DNA of 64,000 nt from Novosphingobium resinovorum. Its GTDB lineage: Bacteria > Pseudomonadota > Alphaproteobacteria > Sphingomonadales > Sphingomonadaceae. The stretch lies in the NCBI RefSeq assembly GCF_001742225.1, contig NZ_CP017076.1, forward strand, positions 310,001 to 374,000. Direction: 5' to 3'. The translations under genes and the position numbers were made by a program. Below are positions 3,389-42,496 of the stretch, piece after piece. A model generated the notes under the pieces. It saw only the letters and a program-made list of their open reading frames with translations. It was not told where the DNA came from and ran no database searches. Position 1 is the stretch's first letter. Every line of letters starts with the position of its first letter.

Positions 3389-5800
3389 TCAATACTTGAT
3401 GTGGGCCTCCACGCCGACGACGCGCGGCGTCAGTACGGTCTGGCTGTAGTAGCGAACCGCCACCCCGTCGTTGACGCCGATGCGCGAACGGTCGTTGCCG
3501 ACCGAGACCACGGCGTACTTGTCGAAGATGTTGTTCGCGAACACGCTGACCCCGAACTTGTCGGTGTCATAGGACAACGAGGCGCGGTGCAGGACGTAGC
3601 CGCTGAGCTTGTCGCCATAGGCACGGTCCCAGCCGAGACGGCTGACGATGCTGCCGCGATAGGTCGCCGTCCAGTTGGCCGACAGTTCGCCGTTGCCCAT
3701 CGGCACCGTGTAAGTGGCGCCCAGGCTGCCCGAGTTCTTGGCCGAGTTCGGCAGACGGTCGCCGGACAGCGCATCGAGCTGGACGAAGCGGAAGCTGTAG
3801 TCGTTCGGCACCTCGCGGATGGTGAGGACACCGGGGATGTCTTCGGTCAGGTGGGCATCGTTGTAGGCATAATTGCCCTGGATCGTCAGTGCCGGGACGG
3901 GCTTGATCTGGAACGAGGTTTCGATGCCCTTCGACAAGGCGCGGCCGCCGTTGACGATGATGCCGGTGGCGCCGTTAACGGTTGCCGAGGCAACCTGCAG
4001 GCCGGTCCACTTGGTGCTGTAGGCGTCGATGTTGAACGTCACCTTGCGGTCGAACAACTGGGCGCGGAAACCGACCTCGATGGTCTTGGTCGAGTCCGGC
4101 CCGTACTGCAGCTCGTCGGGCAGGGCGCAGATGTTCTGGCCCGGCGGCAGCGGGTTGTCGCAAGGCGCGACCGTGTTCGGTCCGCCGATGCGATAGCCCT
4201 TGCTGTAGGTGGCATAGACCATCAGATCGCGCGTAAAGTTGTAGGAAGAGTTGAACTTCCACACCCAGCCGTCCTGACCGGCCTTTCCGCCCGAGGGAGT
4301 CTTGTCGTAAGGGCTGAGCGGTTGATTGCGCAGCAGAGGGAGGGTCTGCGCGCCCGAAATCTCCGAGCTGTATTTGAAGTAGCGTGCGCCGCCGGTAACC
4401 TGCCATTCCGGCGTGACGTGGAAGGTGCCTTCGCCGAAGATCGCCTGCTCTTTGACCGTCGACCGGGTGTAGGAGACGTATTCCAGTTCGTCCGGATTCT
4501 TCGCCAGATTTACCCAGGGGTGGCCGGGGACGTGCTCGGCGTAATCGCGCTGCAATTTCTGCTCGTTGTAGAACCCGCCGAGAACCCAGTTGAACGGGCC
4601 GCCGTGCGTGGAGACGAGGCGCACTTCCTGGTTGACCTGCTGGCGGCGGCTGTAGCTCTCGTTCCAGCTGGAGAACGCAGGGAACAGTTCGTAGTCGTAG
4701 TCGAGGTCGAGCAGCAGGTCGGTGTTGTCGGCGCGCGATTTCGACTTCACGTTGGTGTAGGCGCTCGTCCAGACGAGGTCGGCGATGTCGAAGACGTTGG
4801 CGTTGATCTCCATGCTCAGGAGGTGCGCGCGGCGGTTCATCGGCTCAGCGTAGCGCGCGGCGCTCTCGTACTTGCCCGAACCCAGGACGCCTGCGTTGTT
4901 GGCCTGCGAGCCCTCGGTCTTCGTGCGCTGGAAGGCGTAAGTGAAGATGACCTTGAAGTCGTCGTCGGTCTGGAAGAGCAGCTGGTTGCGGGTGGTGAAG
5001 GTCTTCTCGAAGTTGAGATCCTTGCCCTTGTGCAGGTTCGGGTCATAAGCCGCGCCGGTCGGGCGAGCGGTGCCGTTCGGCTGCGGATCGGATACGCCCG
5101 GCTCGTTCAGCAGGAACGGATAGTCGATGAAGCCGGGGTCGTAATAGTATCCGGTCGACGAACGGAAGGCGATGTGGTCCTTCACGATCGGGATATTGAT
5201 CATCCCGTCGACCTGGTAGCCGAGCTTGGAGGCGTGCGACTTGACGTAAGTGCGGCCGTGCGCCTCGCCTTCCCATTCCTCCGTGTTCGGACGGTTGGGG
5301 ATGTAGCGGATCGCGCCCGCCATGGTGCCCAGGCCATAGAGCGTGCCTTGCGGGCCGAGCAGGGTCTCGACTCGCTGGATGTCGAGCAGCTTGAAGTCGT
5401 AGTAGAGCGGAACTTCGCCGAGGTAGATGCCCATGGCGTTGTCGTAGCTGGCGCCGTCGGGCTGGGTGTCCGACGCGTTGAGGCCGCGCATGACGATCGT
5501 GCCGGTGCCGCGCGGGCCGGTGTCGGAGATGGTCAGGCCGGGGGTGAAGTCCGCCAGGCCGCGCACGTCGTTGATGCGCTGGCGGGCGATCTGGTCCGCG
5601 CCGATGGCCGAAATGTTGATCGGCGTGTCCATGATCGTGGTGGCGCGGCGGGTGCCGGTGACGATGATGGCGTCGCCTTCATCGGAAGCGGCACCGGAAG
5701 CGGCAGGCGCTTCCTGCGCCACGGCGGGCATCGCGAGCACGGTGCTCGTAATCATGGTTGCGGACAGAAGCCCTGCTCTCAATTTCGCGCGATAAGTCAT
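3389..5800 (-). CDS. TonB-dependent outer-membrane receptor
   Basis: An 803-residue TonB-dependent receptor. Residues 1-28 are a signal peptide ending AVAQ. A short TonB-box-like stretch (DAIIVTGTRR) precedes the plug domain (about 55-165; INDVRGLADFTPGL and VETLLGPQGTLYG are classic plug words), and the rest is a beta-barrel ending in an aromatic residue (HIKY). Sphingomonads use many such receptors to import sugars, aromatics and siderophores; the substrate is not evident here. The ATG has a GGGGAAG site five bases upstream. The upstream region 5801-6011 holds no gene and no copy of the operator found in front of nearby genes. Confidence 0.93.
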   Translation of the reverse strand: MTYRAKLRAGLLSATMITSTVLAMPAVAQEAPAASGAASDEGDAIIVTGTRRATTIMDTPINISAIGADQIARQRINDVRGLADFTPGLTISDTGPRGTGTIVMRGLNASDTQPDGASYDNAMGIYLGEVPLYYDFKLLDIQRVETLLGPQGTLYGLGTMAGAIRYIPNRPNTEEWEGEAHGRTYVKSHASKLGYQVDGMINIPIVKDHIAFRSSTGYYYDPGFIDYPFLLNEPGVSDPQPNGTARPTGAAYDPNLHKGKDLNFEKTFTTRNQLLFQTDDDFKVIFTYAFQRTKTEGSQANNAGVLGSGKYESAARYAEPMNRRAHLLSMEINANVFDIADLVWTSAYTNVKSKSRADNTDLLLDLDYDYELFPAFSSWNESYSRRQQVNQEVRLVSTHGGPFNWVLGGFYNEQKLQRDYAEHVPGHPWVNLAKNPDELEYVSYTRSTVKEQAIFGEGTFHVTPEWQVTGGARYFKYSSEISGAQTLPLLRNQPLSPYDKTPSGGKAGQDGWVWKFNSSYNFTRDLMVYATYSKGYRIGGPNTVAPCDNPLPPGQNICALPDELQYGPDSTKTIEVGFRAQLFDRKVTFNIDAYSTKWTGLQVASATVNGATGIIVNGGRALSKGIETSFQIKPVPALTIQGNYAYNDAHLTEDIPGVLTIREVPNDYSFRFVQLDALSGDRLPNSAKNSGSLGATYTVPMGNGELSANWTATYRGSIVSRLGWDRAYGDKLSGYVLHRASLSYDTDKFGVSVFANNIFDKYAVVSVGNDRSRIGVNDGVAVRYYSQTVLTPRVVGVEAHIKY

Positions 5801-6011: not shown

Positions 6012-6977
6012 TCAGTTGGCAGGCTGTGCGGTTTCGCCGCGTCCTGCCCTGATCCGTTCGATCAGGGGCTGGAACGGGAACAGGAACTGCTCCCGGATGG
6101 ACAGGCGCCTGAGATCGTCTTGCCCGACGACGCTGGCTTCACCCTCCTTGTAGGTGCCGAAGATGCGATCGAGCAGGATCAGCGAATTGCCGTAGTTGCA
6201 GCGCGTGCTCTCGTAATCGGTCGAGTGATGCAGGCTGTGATGCCGGATCGTGGTGAAGAAGAAGGAATAGAACAGCGGCGGATCGGAGCGCACGTTGGCG
6301 TGCGCGAAGGTCGATACCACGTTCAGGATGTTGAAGCCGCAGAACAGCGCGGTCGGCGAGAGGTCGAACAGCGCCAGCACGCTCAGGCTGATCAGGAACA
6401 GCTCGATCGGATTGCCGACCGCGCCTTTGGCGGCGTTGAGCTGGGTGATGTGGTGGTGCGGCGCGTGGGTCAGCCAGAACGGCGTCGAATTGTGCATCAG
6501 GCGATGCATCCAGTACTGGCCGAACTCCATGATGAAGACCACCAGCGCCACCTGCAGCAGCCAGGGCATGTGCATCGCCCACTGCGTGGTGATGCCGAGC
6601 GATGTCTTGACCGCCTGCAGCGGCTCCTCGGCCAGCGCGGTCGCGGTCCAGGAGATGACGGTGGCGCTCAGCACGACGTAGAACAGGTCGGTGAAGAACT
6701 CGCGCCAGTTCATGCGCCATCCGGCGTGCCGCTCGTGCACGAACTCGAGGCCCAGCACGACGAGGGTGATCAGTGCGGAGGTGACGATGATTGACCAGCC
6801 GTTGTCGGTCAGCGCCTTGGGCGCGAAGGCCCAGAACGCGACGATCACGGCGACAAACGCCGGGGGCACGAGGTTGAAGATCTTCTGCTTCACGCCCCCG
6901 TCAGCCACCGTGGCATCAGGCGCGAAGGCAGCCGCATCGTTCGAGAGAACCGTGTTGCGGACTGGCAGTTGTTCCAT
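6012..6977 (-). CDS. Fatty acid hydroxylase / sterol desaturase superfamily membrane enzyme
   Basis: A 321-residue integral membrane di-iron enzyme. The histidine clusters are all present: H158-RLM-H162, H171-AP-HHH176 and H246-HSL-HH251, with further histidines between hydrophobic segments at about 38-52, 62-80, 96-118 and 138-152. The family hydroxylates or desaturates lipids (sterols, fatty acids, carotenoids, alkylglycerols) with O2. The substrate cannot be told from sequence. An operator-like palindrome 98 bases before the start ties it to the NikR-like regulon described further on. The gene is monocistronic in this window. Confidence 0.88.
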   Translation of the reverse strand: MEQLPVRNTVLSNDAAAFAPDATVADGGVKQKIFNLVPPAFVAVIVAFWAFAPKALTDNGWSIIVTSALITLVVLGLEFVHERHAGWRMNWREFFTDLFYVVLSATVISWTATALAEEPLQAVKTSLGITTQWAMHMPWLLQVALVVFIMEFGQYWMHRLMHNSTPFWLTHAPHHHITQLNAAKGAVGNPIELFLISLSVLALFDLSPTALFCGFNILNVVSTFAHANVRSDPPLFYSFFFTTIRHHSLHHSTDYESTRCNYGNSLILLDRIFGTYKEGEASVVGQDDLRRLSIREQFLFPFQPLIERIRAGRGETAQPAN

Positions 6978-7074
6978 CGAAACCCCCCATCCAGACCGGT
7001 GGACCGGCCTGCTGTTACAAGATTCTCTCTCCCCGTTTCTTCGCTCTGACCGGCGATGTGATACAAGCTATGGA

Positions 7075-7100
7075 TATTACGTTTCTCGTCAAGCGTATTA
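7075..7100. promoter_or_regulatory. NikR-like operator, site 1 (before desaturase gene)
   Basis: TATTACG, 12 bases, CGTATTA: one mismatch from a perfect inverted repeat with the same half-site and exactly the same spacing as three other sites in the window (9416, 10105, 13056). It lies 98 bases upstream of the desaturase start and behind the stop of the metallo-hydrolase gene, so the desaturase is the likely target. Confidence 0.65.
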
Positions 7101-7238
7101 ATTGAGGGTCGTGCGTTTTGACGACGTGAGGCGAAAAATCACGCTGTAGCGTGGTTTTTGTGCATCTGCGTAACACGCTTGTCGTCCGCAGATGCGCTCG
7201 GCGGCGCGTACCCGGCGCGCCGCCGATTCGGGTCGCCG

Positions 7239-8249
7239 TCAGTAGCGGTAGGGATTCTTGTCGATGGTAGTCGTCCCGCGCGTCTGGTTGCACAGGAAGA
7301 CGGTGCCGGTGAAGTAGATGCCGGGCTCGGTGATCTTCTGCGCGTAGGCCCAGGCCTCGCGCAGTTGCTGCACGGTCATTTGCACGGGGGCCTCGTCGGG
7401 CTGGTACGTCATGCCGTAGGCGTAGTCCTCGCCGTCCTTGCTGATCTCGACGTGGCAACCCATGACGTGCGTGACGGGGTGCGTGTCGCAGAACTGGATC
7501 AGGCGCTTCATGCTGTCGTACCACGGTTCCCAGAAGCTGATGTAGCAGCGGCCGCGATAGAACATGTCGCCGGTATAGAGGATCTGCGTGTAGCTGTCGT
7601 AGTACGCGAACTCGGAAACGACGTGCCCCGGCGAGCCCCAGATCAGTATCTCGCGCCCGCCGAGGTCGAGGGTCACGCGCTCCTCGGGGAAATTGGTCAT
7701 GCCCCAGAAGCCGACCATCTCCTCGTGCGTGAGGCCCATGTAGCGGGTATTGGGGCGGTCGGCGAACTGGTTGGTCGCGGCGTAGTGGTCGGCGTGAAGA
7801 TGGCTGAACGCCACCAGCAGTTCGAGGCTGGCCGGATCGCGGCCGTTGCGGGCGCACCACTCGTCGATGCACTGGTCTACGACGCCGCGCAGGTCCCAGT
7901 CGTTGCGCAACTGCACGAAGCCCTCGTCGAGCAACAGCACCCGGTCGTTGCCGAAGTAGAGCGGCGCGAAGGGTGCCTCGTAGCTATAGGCCTTGTTCTG
8001 GCGCAGGATCGCGGTGTGCGGGTTGTACCAGTGGACCTGCACCGGCGGATCGGTGTTGTCCATGCAGGACGACGAGCCGCAGATCCACTTGTCCGGGAAA
8101 GTGCCGGTCGCGGGCAGGTTGGCCTTGAAGTCGATCGGCGGCGGGCGTGTCGCGGCGGAGGCGGCGTCGGACAGCCCGGTCAGCGCGGCACCGGTCAGCG
8201 GCACGGCGGCGATGGCGGCGTTGTAGGTCAGGAAAGAGCGGCGATCCAC
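7239..8249 (-). CDS. Exported metallo-beta-lactamase-fold hydrolase (complete metal site)
   Basis: A 336-residue MBL-fold protein. It begins with a twin-arginine-like leader (DRRSFLTYNAAIAAVPLTG) ending in an A-S-A-A region, so export through Tat is likely. The metal motif H150-LHAD-H155 is intact, followed by PGHV, the TGD aspartate and a late GCHVE histidine, the full set for two zinc ions. The start is GTG with an AAGGAAA site seven bases upstream. It lies 17 bases after a paralogous gene in the same operon. The family hydrolyses esters, lactones, thioesters or phosphodiesters; the substrate is unknown. Confidence 0.85.
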   Translation of the reverse strand: MDRRSFLTYNAAIAAVPLTGAALTGLSDAASAATRPPPIDFKANLPATGTFPDKWICGSSSCMDNTDPPVQVHWYNPHTAILRQNKAYSYEAPFAPLYFGNDRVLLLDEGFVQLRNDWDLRGVVDQCIDEWCARNGRDPASLELLVAFSHLHADHYAATNQFADRPNTRYMGLTHEEMVGFWGMTNFPEERVTLDLGGREILIWGSPGHVVSEFAYYDSYTQILYTGDMFYRGRCYISFWEPWYDSMKRLIQFCDTHPVTHVMGCHVEISKDGEDYAYGMTYQPDEAPVQMTVQQLREAWAYAQKITEPGIYFTGTVFLCNQTRGTTTIDKNPYRY

Positions 8250-8266
8250 GGTGCGGTTTCCTTAAC

Positions 8267-9388
8267 TCAGAACGGGCGGGGCGGGTTGATGTTCGGCACG
8301 CCTTCCGGCCAGACCGAAGTACGCTGGTCGGGACTGACGCCGTTGAACAGCGCGAAGTCCGGGCGGATTAGCATCATGTCCTTGCCCTTGATCTCGCGCG
8401 CGTGCTGCAGCGCGTCGTCGATCAGGTCGGGCGTCATTTCCAGCACCCGCTCGTAAGGCTTATAGGTGGTGAAGCGGGCATAATACTTGCCCGGCACGAA
8501 CATCATCTCGATGTGTCCACCCAGCAGCCACTTCACCGAATTGGCGGCGGCGAAAGCCTTGAGCCTTTCCAGCGAGGCGACGAAATCGGTGTCGTTGCCG
8601 ATGTTGATCTTGCCGGGGAACAGCAGGTCGCCGGTGAACAGCAGGTCGCAGTAGGGATCGTAGAAGCTGACCCCGTCCTTGTGCGTGCCGGGGGTCGGGA
8701 CGACCGTGATCACGCGATCGCCGAGGTCGATCCTGCCAGTGCCCGAAGGCCAGTTCGCGATGCCGTAGGTCTTCTGCATCAGCGCCAGCGGCTTGGGGAC
8801 GATCGTGGTGTCCGGCCGGTCGGCGAACTGCACGAGGCCCTGGTTCTGCGCGATGTCCTCGGCCGAGGTGAGCGCGACGGTCAGCGGCACCTTGCTGCGC
8901 CCGCGCGCCTTTGCCCAGCGCGCGATGATCGCATCCACCGTCTCACGCAGGGGGTAATGCCCGGCGTTGGCGGTGGCGCCGGTGTCGATCAGCAGCGCGC
9001 CCTTGTTGCCGAACAGCAGGTACGTGAACGGCGCCTCCCAGTGGACGCACACGTTCTGGCGCAGCACGAAGGTATCTTCGTTGTACTGCACCACCTGCAC
9101 GCGCGGGTCGCGGTTCTTCGCCGCGACGTTGGAGCCGTAAGTCCAGCGGAACGACAGGCTGCCCGCCGCGGGGCCATCGCAGGCATAGTCGTGCATGACC
9201 GGCTTGCTGCGATGGAGCGGCACGGCGCTGTCGGTATTACGCACGCCGGGTGGATTGTACCCCAGCGCCGGGTTGCCGTTGGGATAGGCGCGCCCGGTGG
9301 CGGCCTGCGAACTGCCGGAAAACCCCGTGCTACGGGTAGGACTCTGTGCCAAGAAATGCCCCCACACTGGCTGCGAGCGGGTGAACAC
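8267..9388 (-). CDS. Metallo-beta-lactamase-fold protein lacking the HxHxDH motif
   Basis: A 373-residue paralog of the downstream gene. The two align clearly: QFADRP, LDLG/IDLG, TGD, then GCHVE/GGHIE, with QNVCVHWEAPF here matching QNKAYSYEAPF there. In this copy the HLHADH segment reads TSAEDI (174-179) and PGHV reads PGTH, so most zinc ligands are gone while the fold, the TGD aspartate and the last histidine remain. It is probably a non-catalytic or differently acting partner. The start is uncertain: GTG at 9388 is the first in frame after a stop and has a poor ribosome site; M65 (MHDYAC) is another possibility. Confidence 0.78.
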   Translation of the reverse strand: MFTRSQPVWGHFLAQSPTRSTGFSGSSQAATGRAYPNGNPALGYNPPGVRNTDSAVPLHRSKPVMHDYACDGPAAGSLSFRWTYGSNVAAKNRDPRVQVVQYNEDTFVLRQNVCVHWEAPFTYLLFGNKGALLIDTGATANAGHYPLRETVDAIIARWAKARGRSKVPLTVALTSAEDIAQNQGLVQFADRPDTTIVPKPLALMQKTYGIANWPSGTGRIDLGDRVITVVPTPGTHKDGVSFYDPYCDLLFTGDLLFPGKINIGNDTDFVASLERLKAFAAANSVKWLLGGHIEMMFVPGKYYARFTTYKPYERVLEMTPDLIDDALQHAREIKGKDMMLIRPDFALFNGVSPDQRTSVWPEGVPNINPPRPF

Positions 9389-9415
9389 CGGCTCGATCTC
9401 GGGTCAGCTTATCGA

Positions 9416-9441
9416 TATTACGAAACGTGACAACGGTATTA
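9416..9441. promoter_or_regulatory. NikR-like operator, site 2 (divergent promoter)
   Basis: TATTACG, 12 bases, GGTATTA: five of seven positions symmetric, spacing identical to the other sites. It lies between the divergent metallo-hydrolase pair (start 9388) and the first NikR-like gene (start 9555), so it could serve both directions and give autoregulation. Confidence 0.55.
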
Positions 9442-9554
9442 TTTTTGTGCGATGAGAGTATCACTCCACAGCCGACTGCGCCTCCAACTGCTGCTGTCAT
9501 CGGCGGCAAGGTTGGTATAGGGGAGGGCTGTTGTTGTTCCAGAAAGGGCGCCGC

Positions 9555-10064
9555 TTGAGCACCGATCCCGCCAGTCTTGCCCGGCTCTCCATGAGCCTTC
9601 CCGCAGACCTGTTCCGCCAGCTGGATGCCATGGTGGAGGAGCGCGGGCTGCCCTCGCGCTCGCAGCTGATTGCCGAACTGATCCGCCACGCCCTTGCCGA
9701 GCATGAGGCTTTGACCCGGCCGGAAGAGATGCTCGCGGGAACGATCACGCTGGTCTACCGGGGCGACAAGGGGCGGGTGCGCCACCAGCTGGCGCAGAGC
9801 CAGGCGGAGTACCTGAAGGAAGTGATCTCCTCGCAGCACGTCTTCCTCGAGGACGACCAGTCGATGGAAGTCCTGCTGGTGCAGGGCCCGGCCGAGCGGC
9901 TGAAGGAACTGTGCGACGCCCTGCGCGCCATTCGCGGCGTTCACCAGCTGCAGCTGGTCACCACCACCGCGCTCCTGCCGCCGCTTCACGAGCAGGACGA
10001 AGTCGCCGCAAAGGTTGCCGAAACCCCGCGCAAGCAGGAGCCCAAGGACGAAGTGGCGGCCTGA
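9555..10064 (+). CDS. NikR-like ribbon-helix-helix regulator, paralog 1
   Basis: A 169-residue protein with an N-terminal ribbon-helix-helix DNA-binding domain (RLSMSLPADLFRQLDAMV and the following helix PSRSQLIAELIRHAL) and a C-terminal ACT-like domain in the NikR order. By hand alignment to E. coli NikR, the nickel ligands H76, H87, H89 and C95 correspond to A84, H95, F97 and S103 here, so only one of four is kept and nickel sensing in the usual way is unlikely. TTG at 9555 was chosen because it matches the start of the second paralog and has AGAAAGGG upstream; an earlier TTG at 9531 is possible. A candidate operator lies before the gene. Confidence 0.82.
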   Translation: MSTDPASLARLSMSLPADLFRQLDAMVEERGLPSRSQLIAELIRHALAEHEALTRPEEMLAGTITLVYRGDKGRVRHQLAQSQAEYLKEVISSQHVFLEDDQSMEVLLVQGPAERLKELCDALRAIRGVHQLQLVTTTALLPPLHEQDEVAAKVAETPRKQEPKDEVAA

Positions 10065-10104
10065 AGACTCGCGCATGATGCACAAGGGCAATGGTGCGAG
10101 CAAG

Positions 10105-10130
10105 TATTACAAAAATCGCGCACCGTAATA
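10105..10130. promoter_or_regulatory. NikR-like operator, site 3 (before the ABC importer)
   Basis: TATTACA, 12 bases, CGTAATA: six of seven positions symmetric. It lies 60 bases before the importer binding-protein gene. The remaining leader is too short for a guanidine-I riboswitch, so protein-based control is the likely mode. Confidence 0.68.
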
Positions 10131-10190
10131 ATTTTTGATGGACAACGATCCGAATCGCAGCAATGTTGCACTGCGAAAGGGGACCGAGTC

Positions 10191-11279
10191 ATGATCGTAT
10201 CGATCCGCAGCATTGCCAAGGCCGCGTTGATGGCCACCGCGATGCCGGCAGTACTTCTCACCGCCGCCTGCTCGCAGGCGCCGAGCGAAGCGCCCAAGCG
10301 TACCGAATTCAACATCGGATGGTCGATCTACGCGGGCTGGATGCCCTGGCCCTATGCCCAGCAGGCCGGCATCGTGAAGAAGTGGGCCGACAAGTACGGG
10401 CTCAAGATCAACATCGTCCAGGTCAACGACTACGTCGAGTCGGTCAATCAGTACACGGCGGGCAAGCTGGACGGCGTCACCGTCGCCAACATGGATGCGC
10501 TGACGATTCCGGCAGCAGGCGGCAAGGACACCAGCGCGATCATCGTCGGTGACTATTCCAACGGCAATGACGGCATCCTGATGAAGGGCGGCGACCTCAA
10601 GGCGATCAAGGGCCAGTCGGTCAACCTCGTCGAGCTTTCGGTGTCGCACTACCTGCTGGCGCGCGGGCTGAACTCGGTCGGCATGCAGCTCAGGGACGTG
10701 AAGACGGTCAACACCGGCGATGCCGACATCGTCGGCGCCTTCGCCAGCCCCGACGTCAAGGTCGCGGTGGCGTGGAACCCGCAACTCAATGCGATGAAGG
10801 CGCAGCCGGGCGCGAAGCTGGTGTTCAGCTCGGCAGATATTCCGGGCGAAATCCTCGACTTGCTCTGCGTAGATACCGCCACGCTGAAAGCCAACCCCAA
10901 TCTCGGCAAGGCGCTGGCGGGCATCTGGTACGAGACGACCGCGCTGATGACGCGTCAGGACGCCGAGGGCAAGGCCGCCCGCGCGGCGATGGCCAAGCTC
11001 GCGGGCGCCACGCCGGAAGCGTTCGACAGCCAGCTCAGCACGACCTTCCTCTATTCCGACGCCAAGGCTGCCGTCGCCGCGACCGACGCGCCCGCGCTCG
11101 TCACCACGATGACCCGCGTGCGGGACTTCAGCTTCTCCAAGGGGCTGTTCAAGGGCGCCAGTTCGGCCGATGCGGTGGGCATGTCCTTCCCCGGCGGCAA
11201 GACGCTGGGCGATGCGCAGCGCGTGACGCTGCGTTTCGACGACAGCTTCATGAAGATGGCCGCCGACGGCAAGCTCTAG
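10191..11279 (+). CDS. ABC transporter substrate-binding lipoprotein (probable guanidine importer)
   Basis: A 362-residue periplasmic binding protein of the nitrate/taurine/thiamine-precursor (NMT1/SsuA-like) class. A lipoprotein leader ends in LTAAC with C27 as the lipidated cysteine. The mature part starts with the family pattern FNIGWSIYAGWMPWPYAQQAGIVKKWADKYGL, shortened here to its first words. It is followed by its permease and ATPase. In other bacteria this transporter class stands beside the urea/guanidine carboxylase genes and is annotated as carboxylase-related; with the deiminase-like genes downstream, guanidine is the best guess for the ligand. AAGGGGA precedes the ATG. Confidence 0.85.
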   Translation: MIVSIRSIAKAALMATAMPAVLLTAACSQAPSEAPKRTEFNIGWSIYAGWMPWPYAQQAGIVKKWADKYGLKINIVQVNDYVESVNQYTAGKLDGVTVANMDALTIPAAGGKDTSAIIVGDYSNGNDGILMKGGDLKAIKGQSVNLVELSVSHYLLARGLNSVGMQLRDVKTVNTGDADIVGAFASPDVKVAVAWNPQLNAMKAQPGAKLVFSSADIPGEILDLLCVDTATLKANPNLGKALAGIWYETTALMTRQDAEGKAARAAMAKLAGATPEAFDSQLSTTFLYSDAKAAVAATDAPALVTTMTRVRDFSFSKGLFKGASSADAVGMSFPGGKTLGDAQRVTLRFDDSFMKMAADGKL

Positions 11280-11354
11280 AACCGTCCGTTACCGCGCGAG
11301 GGTCGCGGTGGTGAGGCGGGATAAAAACAACACTCCACAGGTGGGATCACGACA

Positions 11355-12170
11355 ATGCGCTGGGTGAATCGTCAGGTCGGGCGAGGGGGGCGGGTGCTTC
11401 TCGGCGCGGTTCCGATCCTGCTGCTCCTGCTGGTCTACATCGTCATGGCCGCGAGCCGCCATGCGGTGAACCCGGCCGACAAGATCCTGCCGCTGCCAGG
11501 CTCCATGGCCGAGAGCATGTCGGCGCTGCTTTTCGTGCCCGACCAGCTCACCGGCCAGCTGGTGTTCTGGGCGGACACCCTCGCGAGCCTGCAGCGCCTT
11601 GGCATCGGCCTTGGCATCTCGACGCTGATGGCGCTGGTGGTGGGCCTTGCGCTCGGCGTCTTGCCGCCGGTGCGCGCGACGTTCGGCCCACTGGTCACCG
11701 GCATCGCGGTCATCCCGCCGATCGCGCTCCTGCCGATCCTGTTCATCGCGCTGGGCCTCGGCGAAACCTCCAAGGTCGCGCTGATCGTCATCGGCATCGC
11801 GCCGGTCATGATCCGCGACATCGCCGCCCACGTCTCCGCGCTTCCCCGGGAGCAGGTGATCAAGGCGCTGACGCTGGGCGCCAACAGTTGGCAGGTGATG
11901 ATCCGCGTCGCCCTGCCGCAAGCCATGCCGCGCCTGCTTCACGCCATCCGCCTCGCACTCGGCCCGGCCTGGGTGTTCCTGATCTCGGCCGAGGCGATCG
12001 CGTCCGACGTGGGGCTCGGCTACCGCATCTTCCTTGTGCGCCGCTACCTCTCGATGGACGTGATCCTGCCTTACGTCGCGTGGATCGCGCTGCTGGCCAT
12101 CGCGATGGACATGGCGCTGACTTTCCTCAGCCACCGGCTGTTTCCCTGGGCACATGGAGAAAGCCATTGA
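11355..12170 (+). CDS. ABC transporter permease (nitrate/taurine class)
   Basis: A 271-residue inner-membrane permease of the SsuC/TauC/NrtB type. About six membrane segments are visible, beginning with LLGAVPILLLLLVYIVMAA, and the cytoplasmic loop with the EAA-type motif reads ALTLGANSWQVMIRVALPQA, which docks the ATPase. It lies 75 bases after the binding-protein gene and overlaps the ATPase start by four bases, a sign of translational coupling. It would form the channel of the importer. Confidence 0.9.
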   Translation: MRWVNRQVGRGGRVLLGAVPILLLLLVYIVMAASRHAVNPADKILPLPGSMAESMSALLFVPDQLTGQLVFWADTLASLQRLGIGLGISTLMALVVGLALGVLPPVRATFGPLVTGIAVIPPIALLPILFIALGLGETSKVALIVIGIAPVMIRDIAAHVSALPREQVIKALTLGANSWQVMIRVALPQAMPRLLHAIRLALGPAWVFLISAEAIASDVGLGYRIFLVRRYLSMDVILPYVAWIALLAIAMDMALTFLSHRLFPWAHGESH

Positions 12171-12922
12171 GCACCCTCCTGAGCTTCCGCGACGTCTGGG
12201 TCGAATACGGCGACCGGATCATCATCGAAAAGCTGAACCTCGACATCGAGCAAGGCGCCTTCGTCTCGATCGTCGGCCCATCCGGCGCGGGCAAGAGCAG
12301 TTTCCTGCGCCTGATACTGGGGCAGGAAGGGCCGAGCCGGGGCGTCATAACCCTCGACGACACGCCGCTCAAACCCGAATGCGGACCGGATCGCGGCGTC
12401 GTGTTCCAGCGCTATTCGGTGTTTCCGCACCTGACCGCGCTGCGCAACACGATCCTCGGGCTGGAATGCGAGAAGGCCCCGGTGCTCGGCCGCCTGTTCG
12501 GCAGCGCCCGCCGCGCCGCCGTCGAAGAGGCGACCGAGATGCTGACGGCGGTGGGCCTCGGCCATAGCCTCGACCTCTACCCCGCGCAGATGTCGGGCGG
12601 CATGCAGCAGCGCCTTGCCATCGCGCAGGCGCTGGTCAAGCGGCCGCGCATCCTGTTGCTCGATGAGCCGTTCGGCGCGCTCGACCCCGGTATTCGTGCC
12701 GACATGCACGCGCTCATCCGCAATCTGTGGCGCAAGTATTCGCTGACGATCGTGATGGTGACGCACGACATTCGCGAGGCATTCTCGCTGGGCACGCGCG
12801 TCCTTGCGCTCGACAAGCGCCGGCACGATCCGCACGCGCCGCACCGCTTTGGAGCCACGGTCGTCTACGACCTGCCCATGCGCGAGCGGGCGGAAGAGAC
12901 GGAAGAGGAGACTGCCGGGTGA
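12167..12922 (+). CDS. ABC transporter ATPase (nitrate/taurine class)
   Basis: A 251-residue ABC ATPase. Walker A is GPSGAGKSS, the signature is MSGGMQQRLAIAQAL, Walker B is RILLLDEPFGALDP and the switch histidine is in MVTHDIREA. A TTG start at 12167 is chosen: it overlaps the permease stop (TTGA), has GGAG eight bases upstream, and gives the usual family N-terminus LSFRDVWVEYGD. The open frame extends much further upstream inside the permease gene, but that part has no ABC homology. It ends the importer operon; a hairpin repeat follows at 12943. Confidence 0.9.
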   Translation: MSTLLSFRDVWVEYGDRIIIEKLNLDIEQGAFVSIVGPSGAGKSSFLRLILGQEGPSRGVITLDDTPLKPECGPDRGVVFQRYSVFPHLTALRNTILGLECEKAPVLGRLFGSARRAAVEEATEMLTAVGLGHSLDLYPAQMSGGMQQRLAIAQALVKRPRILLLDEPFGALDPGIRADMHALIRNLWRKYSLTIVMVTHDIREAFSLGTRVLALDKRRHDPHAPHRFGATVVYDLPMRERAEETEEETAG

Positions 12923-12942
12923 TCGCGTCTACCCCCTTTTCC

Positions 12943-13027
12943 GTCATCCCCGCGAAGGCGGGAATCCATCTCCTGAAGGTGCCTGTTGCACAGTCATCAG
13001 ATGGGTCCCCGCCTTCGCGGGGATGAC
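12943..13027. repeat. 85-bp dispersed hairpin repeat, copy 2
   Basis: GTCATCCCCGCGAAGGCGGG at the left and CCCGCCTTCGCGGGGATGAC at the right are exact inverted copies over 20 bases; the internal words GGATTCCATCT/CAGATGGGTCC are related. It has the same length and sequence as the element at 1037. It separates the importer operon from the second NikR-like gene and could act as a terminator or RNA-stability element. Confidence 0.88.
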
Positions 13028-13055
13028 GGAAAAGAAAGAATGCAATTAGTTTAAA

Positions 13056-13081
13056 TATTACGATTGACGTAAATCGTAATA
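13056..13081. promoter_or_regulatory. NikR-like operator, site 4 (before the carboxylase operon)
   Basis: TATTACG, 12 bases, CGTAATA: a perfect inverted repeat, extended by pairing ATT/AAT to ten bases per arm. It ends 18 bases before the chosen start of the second NikR-like gene, so it overlaps the region where the promoter must lie. It is the best of the four sites. Confidence 0.75.
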
Positions 13082-13099
13082 CCTGAAAAGAGAATGGGC

Positions 13100-13579
13100 A
13101 TGGGCACAGACTCCGCAAGCCTGGCTCGGCTCAGCATGAGCCTTCCGGCAGACCTCTTCAGACAGCTCGACATGATGGTGGCGGAACGCGGCCTGCCTTC
13201 CCGCTCCCAGCTCATCGCCGAACTGATCCGCCATGCTCTGGCCGAGCACGGTTCGCTGATGCGGCCCGAGGAGATGCTCGCGGGCACCATCACCCTCGTC
13301 TACCGCAGCGAGCGGGGCCGCGTGCGGCACCAGCTCTCCCAGACGCAAGCCAGTTACCTGAAGGAAGTGATCTCCTCGCAGCATGTCGTGCTGGAGGACG
13401 ACCAGTCCCTCGAAGTTCTTCTCGTGCAGGGTCCGGCCGTGCGGCTGAAGGAACTGTGCGACGCCATCCGCCGGGTGCGCGGGGTGCAGCAGCTTGAGCT
13501 GGTCACCACCACCGCCCTCCTGCCGCCGCTCTACGACCAGAGCGGAGACGACTTCAAGAATATCGGAGCGCATTCATGA
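13100..13579 (+). CDS. NikR-like ribbon-helix-helix regulator, paralog 2
   Basis: A 159-residue protein very close to the regulator at 9555 over its whole length (shared blocks SLARLSMSLPADLFRQLD, GLPSRSQLIAELIRHALAEH and YLKEVISSQHV). It has the same N-terminal ribbon-helix-helix and C-terminal ACT-like domain. The nickel-ligand positions again read A84, H95, V97 and S103, so only H95 survives. ATG at 13100 is chosen for ribosome-site spacing; ATG at 13094 is also possible. The stop overlaps the start of the next gene (ATGA), making this the first gene of the five-gene carboxylase operon, with the best operator copy directly in front. Confidence 0.85.
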   Translation: MGTDSASLARLSMSLPADLFRQLDMMVAERGLPSRSQLIAELIRHALAEHGSLMRPEEMLAGTITLVYRSERGRVRHQLSQTQASYLKEVISSQHVVLEDDQSLEVLLVQGPAVRLKELCDAIRRVRGVQQLELVTTTALLPPLYDQSGDDFKNIGAHS

Positions 13580-14400
13580 CCGAAACATTGGCCGATCCGC
13601 TCGCAGCCCGAGACCATGCGCGTGCCCAGGGCGGCACCGTGGTCGAGAGCATGCCGGTGCTGCCTCCCGTGGCCGACGACCTGCCTGCAGATGTCGGCGC
13701 CAATGACCTCGTGTGGGAGGAAACGATCGCGGCGGGCGGTTACGCCACGCGGCGCCTGACGCGCGGCTCCCGGTTGCGGCTGATCGACGGAAAGGGCGAC
13801 GCCTGCGCCTCGATCCTGCTGTTCAATGCCGAGATGCCAACCGAGCGCCTCAACGTGGCGGACACGGTGAAGGTCCAGTGGAACGCCTATCTCGGCGAAG
13901 GCAGGCTGCTGCTCTCCGACATGGGCCGCGTGATGATGAGCATCGTCGCTGACGACGCCGGCACGCACGATACCTTCTGCGGCACCTCCAACCCCGCGAT
14001 CAACCTCGCCAAGTACGGCGAGGGCCGCAACTCCGGTGCCTTCCCGAGCGGCCGCGACCGCTTCCTTCTCGGCGCCGCCAAGCATGGGCTCGGCCGCCGT
14101 GATGTCCATCCCTGCGTGACGCTGTTCAAAGGCGCGCGGATCGAGGCGGACGGCGCGATTACGCCTGAGGTCGGCCCCTTCGAGCCCGGCCGCTCCGTGA
14201 TCCTGCGTGCCGAGATGGACGTGATCGTGGTGATCGCCAACGTCCCCCACGTCCTCGATCCGCGCCCCGAATACACCGTGACGCCGCTGCGCGCCTCGGC
14301 ATGGCGCGGTCCGGTGACGGGCGAGGACGACCCCGTCCGCTCCGCGACGCCCGAAGGCCTGCGCGCCTTCGAGAACGTCGAAGACTACTTCCGCCGCTGA
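13576..14400 (+). CDS. DUF1989 protein, probable carboxyguanidine deiminase subunit (UAAP2 type)
   Basis: A 274-residue DUF1989 protein, the longer member of the pair once called urea-carboxylase-associated proteins or aminomethyltransferases. Published work showed that such pairs (CgdA/CgdB) deiminate carboxyguanidine to allophanate. Family features are the block RLTRGSRLRLIDGKGDACAS, the H-D-T-F-C-G segment and the late RAEMDVIVVIANVPHVLDPR segment, shared with the next gene. It overlaps the regulator stop by four bases. No signal peptide is present, so it is cytoplasmic. I do not assign the subunit letter. Confidence 0.83.
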   Translation: MTETLADPLAARDHARAQGGTVVESMPVLPPVADDLPADVGANDLVWEETIAAGGYATRRLTRGSRLRLIDGKGDACASILLFNAEMPTERLNVADTVKVQWNAYLGEGRLLLSDMGRVMMSIVADDAGTHDTFCGTSNPAINLAKYGEGRNSGAFPSGRDRFLLGAAKHGLGRRDVHPCVTLFKGARIEADGAITPEVGPFEPGRSVILRAEMDVIVVIANVPHVLDPRPEYTVTPLRASAWRGPVTGEDDPVRSATPEGLRAFENVEDYFRR

Positions 14401-14417
14401 ACAAGGGACACGCGATC

Positions 14418-15053
14418 ATGAGCACCGATCCTCACATGTCCGGCCTCACCGGCACCGTCATCCACGACATCGTCGTCCCCGCCCGCGCGCCCTGGCTGCA
14501 TCACGTCAAGGCCGGGCAGACGCTGCGCATCGTCGACCTCGAAGGCAATCAGGCGGTCGATTTCCTGCTCTATTCCGCCGCCGACGATGCCGAGCGCTAC
14601 TCCGCGCAGGATACCGTCGCGGCGCAGGGCAACCTGTTCCTGCGCGAAGGCACGAAGCTGCTTTCGAACGAGGGCAATGCGCTGATGACCATCGCCGCTA
14701 CCTCGGTCGACTACCACGACACCATCGGCGGCGCGTGCTCTTGCGAATCCAATACCTTGCGCTACGGTCATCACACAAAATCTGAACACGCCTGCGTCGA
14801 GAACTTCCTGGAGGCCAACCTCCTCGAAGGGCGCGGCAAGCGGGACATCGTCTCCAACATCAACTTCTTCATGAACGTTCCTGTCGAACCCGACGGGTCG
14901 CTGGGCATCGTCGACGGAATATCCGCGCCGGGCCTGACCGTGGACCTGCGGGCGGAGATGGACGTGATCGTCGTCGTGTCCAACTGCCCGCAGGTCAACA
15001 ACCCCTGCAACGGCTTCAACCCCACTCCAGTCCGGATGATCGTCACCGCATGA
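14418..15053 (+). CDS. DUF1989 protein, probable carboxyguanidine deiminase subunit (UAAP1 type)
   Basis: A 211-residue DUF1989 protein, paralogous to the preceding gene (V-x-A-G-Q-T-L-R-I-V-D-L-E-G-N-Q-A-V-D-F near the front, RAEMDVIVVVSNCPQVNNPC at the end). The cysteine-rich GACSCESN segment and nearby H-D-T probably bind the catalytic metal. The ATG at 14418 follows AAGGGACA. Its stop overlaps the carboxylase start (ATGA). With its partner it would convert carboxyguanidine, made by the next enzyme, into allophanate plus ammonia. Confidence 0.85.
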   Translation: MSTDPHMSGLTGTVIHDIVVPARAPWLHHVKAGQTLRIVDLEGNQAVDFLLYSAADDAERYSAQDTVAAQGNLFLREGTKLLSNEGNALMTIAATSVDYHDTIGGACSCESNTLRYGHHTKSEHACVENFLEANLLEGRGKRDIVSNINFFMNVPVEPDGSLGIVDGISAPGLTVDLRAEMDVIVVVSNCPQVNNPCNGFNPTPVRMIVTA

Positions 15054-18000
15054 GCTTCGACACCGTCCTGATCGCGAACCGGGGCGCGATCGCCACCCGC
15101 ATCATCCGCACGCTGCGCAGGATGGGCCTGAAATCCGTCGCGGTCTATTCCGAGGCGGACGAGAACTCCAACCACGTATCCGAAGCCGACGAAGCCGTGT
15201 TCATCGGCGGGGCGAAGGCTTCGGAAAGCTACCTCAACATTCCCGCCATCATCGCCGCGGCGAAGGAGACCGGGGCAGGGGCGATCCATCCCGGCTACGG
15301 CTTCCTGGCCGAGAACGTCGAGTTCGCCGAGGCCTGCGCGGCGGAGGGCATCGTCTTCGTCGGCCCGACCACCGACAACATCCGTACCTTCGGCCTCAAG
15401 CACAGCGCCCGCGCGCTGGCGGCCGCGCACGAGGTGCCGCTGGCGCCGGGCACCGACCTGCTGACCGACGAGGAGGAGGCTGTCAGCGCCGCCGCGTCGA
15501 TCGGCTACCCGGTCATGCTCAAGGCCACCGCAGGCGGCGGCGGCATCGGCATGCGCGTCTGCACCGACGAGGCGCAACTGCGCGACGGTTTCGCCACCGT
15601 GAAGCGGCAGGGGCAGAGCAACTTCGGCGATGCCGGGGTCTTCCTCGAACGCTACATCGGCCGCGCGCGCCACATCGAGGTGCAGCTGTTCGGCGACGGC
15701 GAGGGCCGCGTCATGGCTCTGGGCGAGCGCGACTGTTCGCTCCAGCGCCGCAACCAGAAGGTCGTCGAGGAAGCGCCCGCGCCCTTGCTGCCGGATGCGG
15801 TGCGCACCGCGCTCTACGCCGCCGCCGTGCGTCTGGGCGAGGCTGCCAAGTACCGCTCGGCAGGCACCGTGGAGTTCCTCTACGACGCCGACCGCGCCGA
15901 GTTCTTTTTCCTCGAGATGAACACCCGCCTGCAGGTGGAGCACGGCGTCACCGAGATGGTGATGGGCATCGACCTCGTCGAATGGATGGTGCGCGGCGCG
16001 GCGGGCGATTTCGCCTTCCTCGATGCGCCCGCGCCGACGATGAAGGGCCATTCGGTGCAGATGCGTCTCTACGCCGAAGACCCTTCGCTCGATTATCGCC
16101 CGACTTCGGGCACGCTGACCGCGCTGGAATTCCCCGAGGACATCCGCGTCGAGACGTGGTGCTCGGCGGGCAGCACCGTCAGCGCGTGGTACGACCCGAT
16201 GCTGGCCAAGCTGATCGTCCACGCGCCCACCCGCGAGGAAGCGGTGGAAGCCGCCCGGCGCGCGATCGACGCCACCCGCGTGGACGGCATCGAGACGAAC
16301 GTGCGCTGGCTGCGCGACGTGGTGCGCACCCCGGCTTTCACCAGCGGCGAAGTCTCGACCAAGGTGCTCGACGGCGTGGTGTTCACCCCGCGCGCCTTCC
16401 GCGTCGTCAGCGGCGGCACCGCGACGACCGTGCAGGACTGGCCCGGCCGCCAGCACTTGTGGGCCGTGGGCGTGCCGCCTTCGGGACCGATGGACGACCA
16501 GTCGTTCCGCCTCGGCAACCGGCTGCTCGGCAATCCGGAGGGCACGGTCGGCCTCGAAGCCACCGTCACCGGCCCGACGCTGGCCTTCGTCTCCGACGCG
16601 CGCATCTGCCTGACCGGCGCGGATTTCGGCGCGACGCTCGACGGCGTGCCGGTGGAGCGCGGCGTCGCAATCGACGTCGCCGCCGGACAGACCCTCGCGA
16701 TGGGCCGCTCCTCCTCCGGCGGCTTCCGGGGCTACATCCTGTTCGCTGGCGGGCTCGATATCGCGCCCTACCTCGACAGCCGCGCCACTTTCGAGCTTGG
16801 CCAGTTCGGCGGCCACGCCGCGCGCCGTCTGCTGGCGGGCGACACGATCCACCTTGGCTCCGACCCGACCGAGGCGGCCTTGGCCGCCGTCACGTTGCCC
16901 GCGATCGGCAACGAATGGACCCTGCGCGTCCTCTACGGCCCGCACGGCGCGCCGGACTTCTTCACGCCCGAAGACGTGGAAATGGTCATCAATGCCGAGT
17001 GGAAGATCCACTACAACTCCAACCGCACCGGCGTGCGCCTGATCGGCCCCAAGCCGCGCTGGGCACGCACTGACGGCGGCGAGGCGGGCCTGCACCCCTC
17101 CAACATCCACGACAACCCCTACGCCATCGGCGCGGTGGACTTCACCGGCGACATGCCGATCATCCTCGGCCTCGATGGGCCGTCGCTCGGCGGGTTCGTG
17201 TGCCCCTTCGTGGTGATCGCGGCGGACCGCTGGAAGATCGGCCAGCTCGCTCCCGGCGACAAGCTGCGCTTCGCCCCGGTGACCATCGAGGACGCCGCAG
17301 CCGCCGACGCCGCCCAGCGCAATTTCGTGGCGACCGGCGCGGTGCCCGCAGCCACCCCGGCGCGCGGCGTGGAGACGCTGACACCGATCCTCGCGGAAAT
17401 TCCGGCCGAGAATTCTGGGGCCCCCGGCCGTCCCCGCACGGTCTACCGCCAGCAGGGCGACCGCAACATCCTCGTCGAATACGGCCCGATCGTGCTCGAC
17501 ATCGAGCTGCGCATCCGCGTCCATGCGCTGATGACCGAGCTGGAACGCCTTGCCGCGCCCGGCATCATCGACATCGTGCCCGGCATCCGCTCGCTCCAGC
17601 TGCATTTCGACGGCACGGAGATGGACCAGAAGGCGGCGCTCGCCATGCTGATCGCCGCCGAGGAGCGGCTTGGCGACCTCGAGGACTTCACGATCCCCTC
17701 GCGCGTGGTCCACCTGCCGCTCAGCTGGCGCGATCCGGCGATCGTCGAGACGATCGAGAAGTACATGGCCACCGTGCGCGATGATGCGCCGTGGTGCCCG
17801 GACAATATCGAGTTCATCCGCCGCATCAATGGCCTGCCCGATCAGGCCGCGGTCGAGAACCTGATCTTCGAGGCGAACTACCTCGTCATGGGGCTGGGCG
17901 ACGTCTATCTCGGCGCGCCGGTCGCGACGCCGGTGGACCCGCGCCATCGCCTCGTCACCACCAAGTACAACCCCGCGCGCACCTGGACGCCGCCCAACGT

Positions 18001-20415: not shown

Positions 20416-20418
20416 GCC

Positions 20419-20539
20419 TCTCTCCCCGCTTGCGGGGAGAGATACGAAGGCTTGCGGGCTTGTCCCGCTAGCCGCAGTTGAGAGGGGCCAGCGCGGGAGC
20501 ATTCCCCTCTCCCAACCCTCTCCCCTGAAGGGGAGAGGG
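20419..20539. repeat. Pyrimidine/purine-rich double hairpin repeat
   Basis: Two hairpins about 70 bases apart: TCTCTCCCCG/CGGGGAGAGA (20419-20442) and CCCTCTCCCCT-GA-AGGGGAGAGGG (20516-20539, 11-bp stem). They are related in sequence, and the arrangement resembles short interspersed palindromic elements common in alphaproteobacteria. It directly follows the allophanate hydrolase gene and probably marks the end of that operon. Confidence 0.7.
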
Positions 20540-20566
20540 CTCCAAGCAACCAAAGGGGCAAAATCC

Positions 20567-21631: not shown

Positions 21632-21716
21632 AGCAATACAATTGAGAGTGATCAGGCGTAGAGTGCCCTTAGGTGCCGTTAAGTACCGTCTGGGTGCCAT
21701 CCAATCAGGGACGCTT

Positions 21717-21733
21717 CATAAATTGCATCTATG
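21717..21733. promoter_or_regulatory. LysR-type palindrome before the lysR gene
   Basis: CATAAAT-TGC-ATCTATG, a 7-3-7 inverted repeat with one mismatch that contains the T-N11-A pattern of LysR-family sites. It lies 33 bases before the chosen lysR start. A nearly identical palindrome overlaps the lysR stop codon at 22700. Confidence 0.5.
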
Positions 21734-21765
21734 ACCCGGCTTTCGGACCGGCTACCCCTGTTGCC

Positions 21766-42335: not shown

Positions 42336-42496
42336 GCGGGGCTCCGGGCTTGGGGGCAAGTGCACCGGCGGCCCGACCGGCACTGCGAAACCTGCTTGCC
42401 GGGATCGGCGAGCACCCGCCGGTAGCTATTGCAGCCTTGGCGCGGTGCCGCAACCGGAACCGGGCATAGGAATGCTACGGCCCCGCACCCGATCCC

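What the first reader, a model, noticed from the sequence alone, without database searches (positions are those of the whole stretch)
7075..13081. A four-site operator family, TATTACG-N12-CGTAATA, defines a local regulon
Sites at 7075, 9416, 10105 and 13056 share the half-site and exactly 12 bases between halves; the last is a perfect palindrome. They lie before the desaturase gene, between the MBL pair and NikR-like gene 1, before the ABC importer and before NikR-like gene 2 with the carboxylase operon. I saw no further TATTAC-type dyad elsewhere in the window. NikR proteins bind long, split palindromes, so the two NikR-like proteins are natural binders. This links a lipid-modifying enzyme and exported MBL-fold proteins to nitrogen-compound uptake.
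Basis: partly seen in the sequence, partly recalled or inferred. Interest (0 to 1): 0.85.

Follow-up and report, generated by a model that had tools for sequence, protein, structure and literature searches.

The report
NikR-like guanidine regulon without nickel
Four matching DNA sites in a sphingomonad bacterium look like switches for a set of guanidine-use genes, probably worked by a relative of the nickel sensor NikR that has lost its nickel-binding site; if confirmed, it could be the first protein regulator known to sense guanidine.

Summary
The four sites are real and not chance. Their conserved form is TATTAC-N14-GTAATA. In 91 distinct related loci (1.75 Mb) it occurs 235 times with at most one mismatch; 20 scrambled half-sites occur 0-1 times each, other gaps (8-20) 0-8 times. 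None of the 235 lies in a mapped gene; 229 lie within 450 bp upstream of the same gene kinds. The operon is a guanidine carboxylase pathway with its importer (diagnostic Asp). The regulon is not only local: two more sites in this genome lie just before unlinked paralogs of the 'desaturase'. The best candidate binder is the NikR-like protein, which co-occurs with the sites; five guanidine loci with a LysR gene instead have none at one mismatch. It keeps the NikR fold but has lost three of four nickel ligands. Some sites contain promoter boxes, so it is most likely a repressor, released by guanidine or a related compound. No guanidine riboswitch was found in the window or in seven such loci scanned. 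A 2025 review knows no guanidine-binding regulatory protein. Binding and effector are untested.

The parts
7075..7100 (.). Operator 1, before the FA_hydroxylase ('desaturase') gene; contains a likely -35 element (TTGACG, 7087-7092 on the minus strand; placed by hand), with a possible -10 at 7065-7070 (minus)
9416..9441 (.). Operator 2, in the gap between divergent MBL2 (-) and NikR-like gene 1 (+)
10105..10130 (.). Operator 3, before the ABC importer operon (0 mismatches to TATTAC-N14-GTAATA)
13056..13081 (.). Operator 4, 12 bp before the listed ATG of NikR-like gene 2 and the carboxylase operon (0 mismatches)
6012..6977 (-).
7239..8249 (-). MBL1: MBL-fold protein with HxHxDH and a twin-arginine-like start
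8267..9388 (-). MBL2: MBL-fold protein without HxHxDH
9531..10064 (+). NikR-like regulator 1 (177 aa; RHH_1 + NikR_C)
10191..11279 (+). ABC substrate-binding protein, TIGR03427 (urea-carboxylase-linked), 520.6 bits over cut-off 333.9
11355..12170 (+). ABC permease
12167..12922 (+). ABC ATPase (mechanical ORF 11888-12922; start at 12167 inferred from overlap with the permease stop)
13094..13579 (+). NikR-like regulator 2 (161 aa; regulator 1 is 83% identical to it over residues 3-150)
13576..14400 (+). UAAP1 (TIGR03425), a carboxyguanidine deiminase subunit
14421..15053 (+). UAAP2 (TIGR03424), the other deiminase subunit
15050..18658 (+). Guanidine carboxylase (annotated urea carboxylase, TIGR02712 1757.5 bits); D697 aligns with K. 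lactis N1330
18550..20415 (+). Allophanate hydrolase (mechanical ORF start overlaps the carboxylase; true start probably downstream)
20381..21511 (+). Repeat protein (DUF6923/DUF5074), found in 70 of 74 named loci, next to MBL1 in some. Mechanical ORF start; true start probably downstream
21673..22704 (+). LysR-type regulator; its relatives sit in five guanidine loci that lack the NikR-like gene
3389..5800 (-). TonB-dependent receptor; in many relatives it has an operator of its own

Best explanation
The four sites are operators of a NikR-like ribbon-helix-helix regulator (two copies here) that controls guanidine uptake and degradation. Two dimers of one tetramer would sit on the two TATTAC arms, 20 bp apart, about two helical turns. 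Sites before several targets contain promoter boxes, so the protein most likely represses: the FA_hydroxylase-type gene, the MBL pair, the ABC importer, its own gene, the guanidine carboxylase operon behind it and, in many relatives, a TonB receptor. Its nickel site is gone. I infer that the remodelled pocket takes guanidine, or a close guanidino compound or pathway intermediate, and that this releases the DNA. Shown by computation: the sites, their conservation, gene partners, -35 overlap at some promoters, lost ligands, guanidine-type carboxylase. Inferred: binder (about 0.9), repressor (about 0.65), guanidine-type effector (about 0.55). The confidence below is for binder plus guanidine regulon.
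For: Statistics: 235 sites in 91 loci against 0-1 for each of 20 scrambled half-sites; of gaps 8-20 only 14 stands out; 0 of 235 inside mapped genes, 229 of 235 before regulon genes. Co-occurrence in 199 family genomes: a NikR-like ortholog (over 100 bits) in 26, all among the 31 with UAAP1 over cut-off. The 5 UAAP1 genomes without it carry a LysR gene and no site at 1 mismatch. Perfect sites: 21 of 24 NikR-like genomes, 0 of 25 without it. Reach: the operator recurs in another family (0 mismatches, ending 14 bp before the NikR-like match) and, with a 43%-identical NikR-like protein, between divergent NikR-like and ABC genes in a Methylobacterium-like genome. Own genome: 2 extra sites just before unlinked FA_hydroxylase paralogs; 3 of 6 PF04116 genes have a site. 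Promoters: a TTGAC (TonB, FA_hydroxylase) or TTG (MBL2) box inside the site. Pathway: Asp at the K. lactis 1330 position in 103 of 104 loci, duplicates included; the other is truncated. Nickel: in 121 of 121 NikR-like ORFs of 99 loci three ligand positions are changed; no other NikR_C gene, no urease alpha.
Against: No binding or expression data. The effector is guilt by association. In two second-clade loci (L227, L228) the NikR-like gene sits with a creatininase-family gene and type III glutamine synthetase, with no guanidine carboxylase in the 19 kb fetched. In L196 the UAAP/carboxylase genes have their own guanidine-II riboswitch, so there the NikR-like protein may sense something else. 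The -10 assignment is weak: for TonB and FA_hydroxylase a 14-bp spacer scores nearly as well as 16 (2.90 against 2.95 and 2.79 against 2.84 of 6 matches); only MBL2 (3.9) is clear, and no -10 is clear for the NikR-like and importer genes. Only 29 of 43 MBL2, 36 of 61 desaturase and 42 of 77 TonB loci have a site within 450 bp; some hits may be paralogs. One extra NikR-like copy (L067) has neither site nor carboxylase genes. Some extra sites have no fitting target: L108 (before an M24 peptidase), L113 (before a sulfotransferase gene), L114, and C3:123852 in the own genome.
Confidence: 0.85

Rival explanations
1. The NikR-like proteins bind the sites and regulate these genes, but they sense something other than guanidine: general nitrogen status, a larger guanidino compound brought in by the TonB receptor, allophanate or carboxyguanidine, or a creatinine-like compound.
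For: Second-clade relatives pair with a creatininase-family gene and type III glutamine synthetase rather than the carboxylase in L227 and L228; in L196 guanidine is already sensed by a guanidine-II riboswitch at UAAP1. TonB, MBL and FA_hydroxylase genes suggest a bulkier substrate.
Against: In the named sphingomonad loci (UAAP1 and UAAP2 in 74 of 74, carboxylase in 73 of 74) and in L229 the neighbour is the guanidine carboxylase set. Creatinine is itself a guanidino compound (recalled).
Confidence: 0.35
2. Ordinary nickel-responsive NikR repression: the proteins bind nickel and shut the genes off.
For: NikR fold and domains; split palindrome of about NikR geometry (operators of known NikRs recalled).
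Against: Ligands equal to P. horikoshii H78, H91 and C97 are replaced in 121 of 121 ORFs; scores are under the NikR cut-offs; no urease alpha in the genome; the targets are not nickel genes; canonical NikRs fall in a separate clade (with a long-branch warning) and the 11 loci looked at have no site at up to 2 mismatches.
Confidence: 0.04
3. The LysR-type regulator at 21673-22704 is the binder.
For: It is beside the cluster, and relatives (64-71% identical) lie before the importer in 5 guanidine loci.
Against: Those 5 loci have no site at up to 1 mismatch; 14 of the 91 mapped loci hold this LysR gene within the fetched stretch while 89 hold sites.
Confidence: 0.05
4. Chance AT-rich palindromes or promoter elements with no common regulator.
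For: TTGAC and TAATA parts resemble promoter boxes.
Against: searches (shuffles, scrambled half-sites, fixed gap; 0 of 25 NikR-lacking genomes have a perfect site), 0 of 235 in mapped genes.
Confidence: 0.01

Closest known systems
NikR nickel-responsive repressors (P. horikoshii, E. coli, H. pylori)
   Same: RHH + NikR_C architecture; best sequence and structure match is PhNikR (2bj1/2bj3, 37% identity). C-terminal domain alone matches H. pylori NikR at TM 0.9 (target-normalised). Split palindromic operators about two helical turns apart (recalled for NikR).
   Different: Three of four nickel ligands lost; separate clade; regulon is guanidine use, not nickel uptake.
Guanidine carboxylase pathway under guanidine-I/II riboswitches (enterobacteria, nitrifiers)
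   Same: Same genes: importer, CgdA/CgdB (UAAP1/2), guanidine carboxylase with Asp, allophanate hydrolase (PMC12186494, PMC11410670, passages read).
   Different: No guanidine riboswitch in the window or in 7 sphingomonad NikR-like loci scanned; DNA operator and protein regulator instead; TonB receptor, MBL pair and FA_hydroxylase added.
Methylguanidine module (MgdH dioxygenase, Vreelandella; PMC12508155, abstract start and passages read)
   Same: A guanidine operon extended by an oxidising enzyme that frees guanidine from a substituted form.
   Different: Here the added oxidase-like protein is of the FA_hydroxylase family; its substrate is unknown.
LysR-carrying guanidine loci in other sphingomonads (L102-L106)
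   Same: Same importer and carboxylase genes, same family of bacteria.
   Different: LysR gene in place of NikR-like; no TATTAC-N14-GTAATA site at up to 1 mismatch.

Membership tests
NikR (nickel-responsive regulator) | RHH_1 DNA-binding plus NikR_C domain | tested here: met
NikR (nickel-responsive regulator) | Four nickel ligands (PhNikR H78, H89, H91, C97) | tested here: not met
   alignment; over 121 NikR-like ORFs in 99 loci (duplicates included) the first is never His, the second always His, the third Phe or Val, the fourth always Ser. The ligand numbering is recalled
NikR (nickel-responsive regulator) | Score over the NCBIfam NikR equivalog/subfamily cut-offs | tested here: not met
   Best model 100 and 91 bits against 105; all five models under cut-off for both proteins
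NikR (nickel-responsive regulator) | Targets are nickel transport or nickel enzymes | tested here: not met
   Targets are guanidine genes; no urease alpha
NikR (nickel-responsive regulator) | Nickel-dependent DNA binding | not testable with these tools
   needs bench work
Guanidine carboxylase pathway | TIGR02712 carboxylase with Asp at K. lactis 1330 and 1584 | tested here: met
   D697 opposite N1330; Asp opposite 1584 counted by hand in the alignment; criterion in PMC11410670; Asp at 1330 in 103 of 104 loci
Guanidine carboxylase pathway | CgdA/CgdB (UAAP1/UAAP2) and allophanate hydrolase alongside | tested here: met
   74 of 74 named loci have both UAAPs, 73 of 74 the hydrolase
Guanidine carboxylase pathway | Growth on guanidine or enzyme activity | not testable with these tools
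   needs bench work
Guanidine-riboswitch regulon | Guanidine riboswitch before the genes | tested here: not met
   none in the window or 7 sphingomonad NikR-like loci; guanidine-I in 0 of 199 and guanidine-II in 2 of 199 family genomes, neither of them with the NikR-like gene (strict filters); classes III and IV were not searched family-wide

The most novel reading that the evidence does not exclude
A clade of NikR-derived regulators has exchanged its nickel site for a guanidinium-binding pocket and is a protein guanidine sensor, taking in sphingomonads the place that riboswitches hold elsewhere. Its regulon brings a TonB receptor, an exported MBL pair (one member without the metal motif), and FA_hydroxylase-type enzymes into guanidine biology, possibly to release guanidine from larger alkylated compounds.
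Probability: 0.5. Interest if true: 0.88.

Novelty: new variant of a known kind. Interest (0 to 1): 0.75.

Why it matters
[quoted passage not shown] Here is a concrete candidate with a defined operator, exact promoters and two small proteins to test. It would show a metal sensor changing its signal while keeping its DNA-binding head, and it warns that the 'nickel-responsive' labels on many of the listed homologs that bear a name may be wrong. The regulon tells where to look for new guanidine biology: TonB uptake, MBL-fold and FA_hydroxylase-type proteins.

Tried and rejected
Nickel regulation, LysR binding and chance were considered and rejected (see rivals). PDB sequence searches of the two MBL proteins found nothing at E 0.001. 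A paper search for creatininase, glutamine synthetase and guanidine gave nothing of use. The model of the NikR-like monomer (mean pLDDT 73, pTM 0.51) confirms the fold only; it cannot show the tetramer pocket. In one search two query 'proteins' (x20468, x21679) were antisense shadow ORFs; hits to the first pointed to the real gene at 20381-21511 on the other strand, used from then on. A first count of ligand residues used a search pattern that itself demanded His, Gln and Ser, so it could not test two of the four positions; it was replaced by an alignment of all ORFs. The repressor odds were lowered from 0.7 to 0.65 after re-reading. The site at own-genome C3:123852 lies among repeats before what looks like an XRE-type gene (by eye) and was set aside.

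Rows dropped before counts: of 100 loci (24 + 74 + L229 + window) 9 were removed as duplicates, the window among them; the window then stood in for L118, the named locus (N. resinovorum) that holds the same 300-bp middle stretch. G193 (short contig) was not in the pattern search. The output was cut, so two of the 21 genomes with a perfect site (G021, G076) are read. The 74 named loci come from the best 80 of 256 matches, so they lean to close relatives. Distances to genes use extrapolated tblastn ends.

Papers: PMC12186494, PMC11410670, PMC12508155 and PMC2667541 were seen as passages only; all others as search listings, some capped (20 of 24, 9 of 9, 19 of 19, 20 of 56, 1 of 1, 25 of 73 and 12 of 22 papers listed). 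Recalled, from no call: the usual nickel ligand numbering, operators of E. coli and other NikRs, the Tat motif, the chemistry of creatinine.
Full report
OBSERVATION. Mismatches are 1, 2, 1 and 0. In the own genome (6.92 Mb, five contigs), the same pattern at up to three mismatches gives 38 places; the only places with zero or one mismatch are in the window. With the shorter arm, TATTAC-N14-GTAATA at up to one mismatch, there are seven sites: the four, two others on the same contig (400481 and 1429899), and one on C3.

GENES. Around the sites lie: a TonB receptor; an FA_hydroxylase-family protein; two MBL-fold proteins; NikR-like 1; an ABC importer whose binding protein passes the TIGR03427 cut-off; NikR-like 2; UAAP1; UAAP2; a carboxylase passing the urea carboxylase model; allophanate hydrolase; a repeat protein; a LysR regulator. 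The carboxylase has Asp where K. lactis urea amidolyase has N1330. That residue together with Asp 1584 is the criterion for guanidine carboxylase in PMC11410670. So the operon is, by sequence, a guanidine rather than urea pathway; 103 of 104 related loci (duplicates and the five LysR loci included) have the same Asp, the last being truncated. No guanidine riboswitch is in the window.

CONSERVATION. Twenty-six of 199 family genomes carry the NikR-like ortholog (over 100 bits), and all 26 are among the 31 genomes with UAAP1 over its cut-off. All 24 loci L043-L066 keep importer, NikR-like, UAAP1, UAAP2 and carboxylase genes; 22 show the hydrolase, and the other two (L055, L059) end at the contig end in or just after the carboxylase gene. 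A scan of named genomes gave 74 further loci in Novosphingobium, Sphingobium, Sphingomonas, Blastomonas and others; 72 of 74 hold sites, and the two without are cut-off contigs. Over 91 distinct loci there are 235 sites; scrambled half-sites give 0 or 1 each (20 tried), and gaps of 8-20 other than 14 give 0-8. None of the 235 is inside a mapped gene; 229 are within 450 bp upstream of an importer, NikR-like, TonB, FA_hydroxylase or MBL2 gene. The binding-protein gene has a site in 87 of 89 loci, the NikR-like gene in 51 of 91; in many of the rest the NikR-like gene follows the importer genes directly.

WHO BINDS. The five UAAP1 genomes without a NikR-like gene carry a LysR gene 64-71% identical to the window's, and no site at one mismatch (one two-mismatch hit in L102). 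Perfect sites occur in 21 of 24 genomes with the NikR-like gene and 0 of 25 without it. The window's two are the only NikR_C genes of the genome. A 72%-identical protein in another family has a perfect site that ends 14 bp before the matched stretch. A 43%-identical one in a Methylobacterium-like genome (named by its 99% match) has a one-mismatch site in the gap to the divergent importer. Canonical NikRs from 11 loci have no such site at two mismatches and no guanidine cluster, and fall in a separate clade (100/98 support, with a long-branch warning). Both clades of NikR-like proteins keep R-x-S-x-S/T in the strand that in NikR contacts DNA, which fits their shared operator.

BEYOND THE WINDOW. 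The two extra own-genome sites at C2:400481 and C2:1429899 lie just before FA_hydroxylase paralogs (41-42% identical to the window's). Three of the six PF04116 genes of the genome thus have a site. In a relative (G138) unlinked sites precede two TonB genes, an FA_hydroxylase gene and, by a 40% tblastn match, an MBL gene; another relative (G069) has one before an FA_hydroxylase gene. Some extra sites have no fitting target (L108, L113, L114).

MECHANISM. In the TonB and FA_hydroxylase promoters the site contains a TTGAC box (86-100% per base), in MBL2 promoters a TTG box. Conserved bases follow the site (TCCATACCGT and TCCATATGAT types). At a 16-bp spacer they give a -10-like element: 3.9 of 6 matches to TATAAT for MBL2, but only 2.95 and 2.84 for TonB and FA_hydroxylase, where a 14-bp spacer scores about the same. 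A tetramer on the site would cover the -35 box, so repression is most likely. The NikR-like sites lie directly before the gene, and the importer sites at a median of 62 bp before it; there no -10 is clear. Over 121 NikR-like ORFs in 99 loci the four nickel ligand positions read A (or V, S, T, G, I, Q, R), H, F/V and S; Asp 103 and Ser 105 are invariant, Glu 101 and Gln 104 kept in 120 of 121. I infer that this pocket could hold guanidinium; that is not shown. The genome has no urease alpha gene, so a nickel link is unlikely.

COMPLICATIONS. In the second clade, L227 and L228 pair the NikR-like gene with a creatininase-family gene and type III glutamine synthetase; L196 has these plus the UAAP/carboxylase genes, which there carry a guanidine-II riboswitch. 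Second-clade proteins mostly keep the HVH pair and have lost the first His and the Cys. So the wider clade may sense guanidino compounds in general, or something else. This is the main doubt on the effector. A second NikR-like copy in G138 (L067) has no site and no carboxylase genes, though LysR and binding-protein relatives lie 7-8 kb away.

LITERATURE. Searches combining NikR, CopG or ribbon-helix-helix with guanidine or urea carboxylase terms (some lists capped) listed no paper that, from its listing, ties this regulator to guanidine genes; the library lacks most subscription journals. [quoted passage not shown]

VERDICT. The operator and regulon are real; the NikR-like protein is very probably the binder; guanidine or a relative is the best guess for the signal.

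Noticed in passing
window 8267-9388 (MBL2) and 7239-8249 (MBL1): MBL1 keeps HxHxDH in 32 of 32 close orthologs, MBL2 in 0 of 32: a pair of one apparently active and one metal-motif-less MBL protein, conserved together.
   Followed up: partly
L196:16530-16579: Guanidine-II riboswitch before UAAP1 in the same locus that has a NikR-like operator at the importer.
   Followed up: partly
L227, L228, L196: Second NikR-like clade (Methylobacterium, Methylocella, Methylomonas and others; several named nickel-responsive NikR) beside creatininase-family and type III glutamine synthetase genes in the three loci looked at; function unknown.
   Followed up: partly
window 42363-42417 (-): nhaA-I riboswitch (42.1 bits).
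   Followed up: no
L040, L041: Other sphingomonad NikR-family proteins that lack the HVH and Cys of the nickel site, in the canonical clade of the tree; a separate loss. Only 3.4 kb of each locus was looked at.
   Followed up: no
L108:6284, L113:9258, L113:10343: Good operator matches before no known regulon gene (an M24 peptidase gene; a small exported protein; a TPR/sulfotransferase protein).
   Followed up: no
window 12940-13030: A short inverted repeat (TTTTCCGTCATCCCCGCGAAGGCGGG and its complement), seen by eye, between the importer ATPase gene and operator 4; looks like a small repeat element.
   Followed up: no
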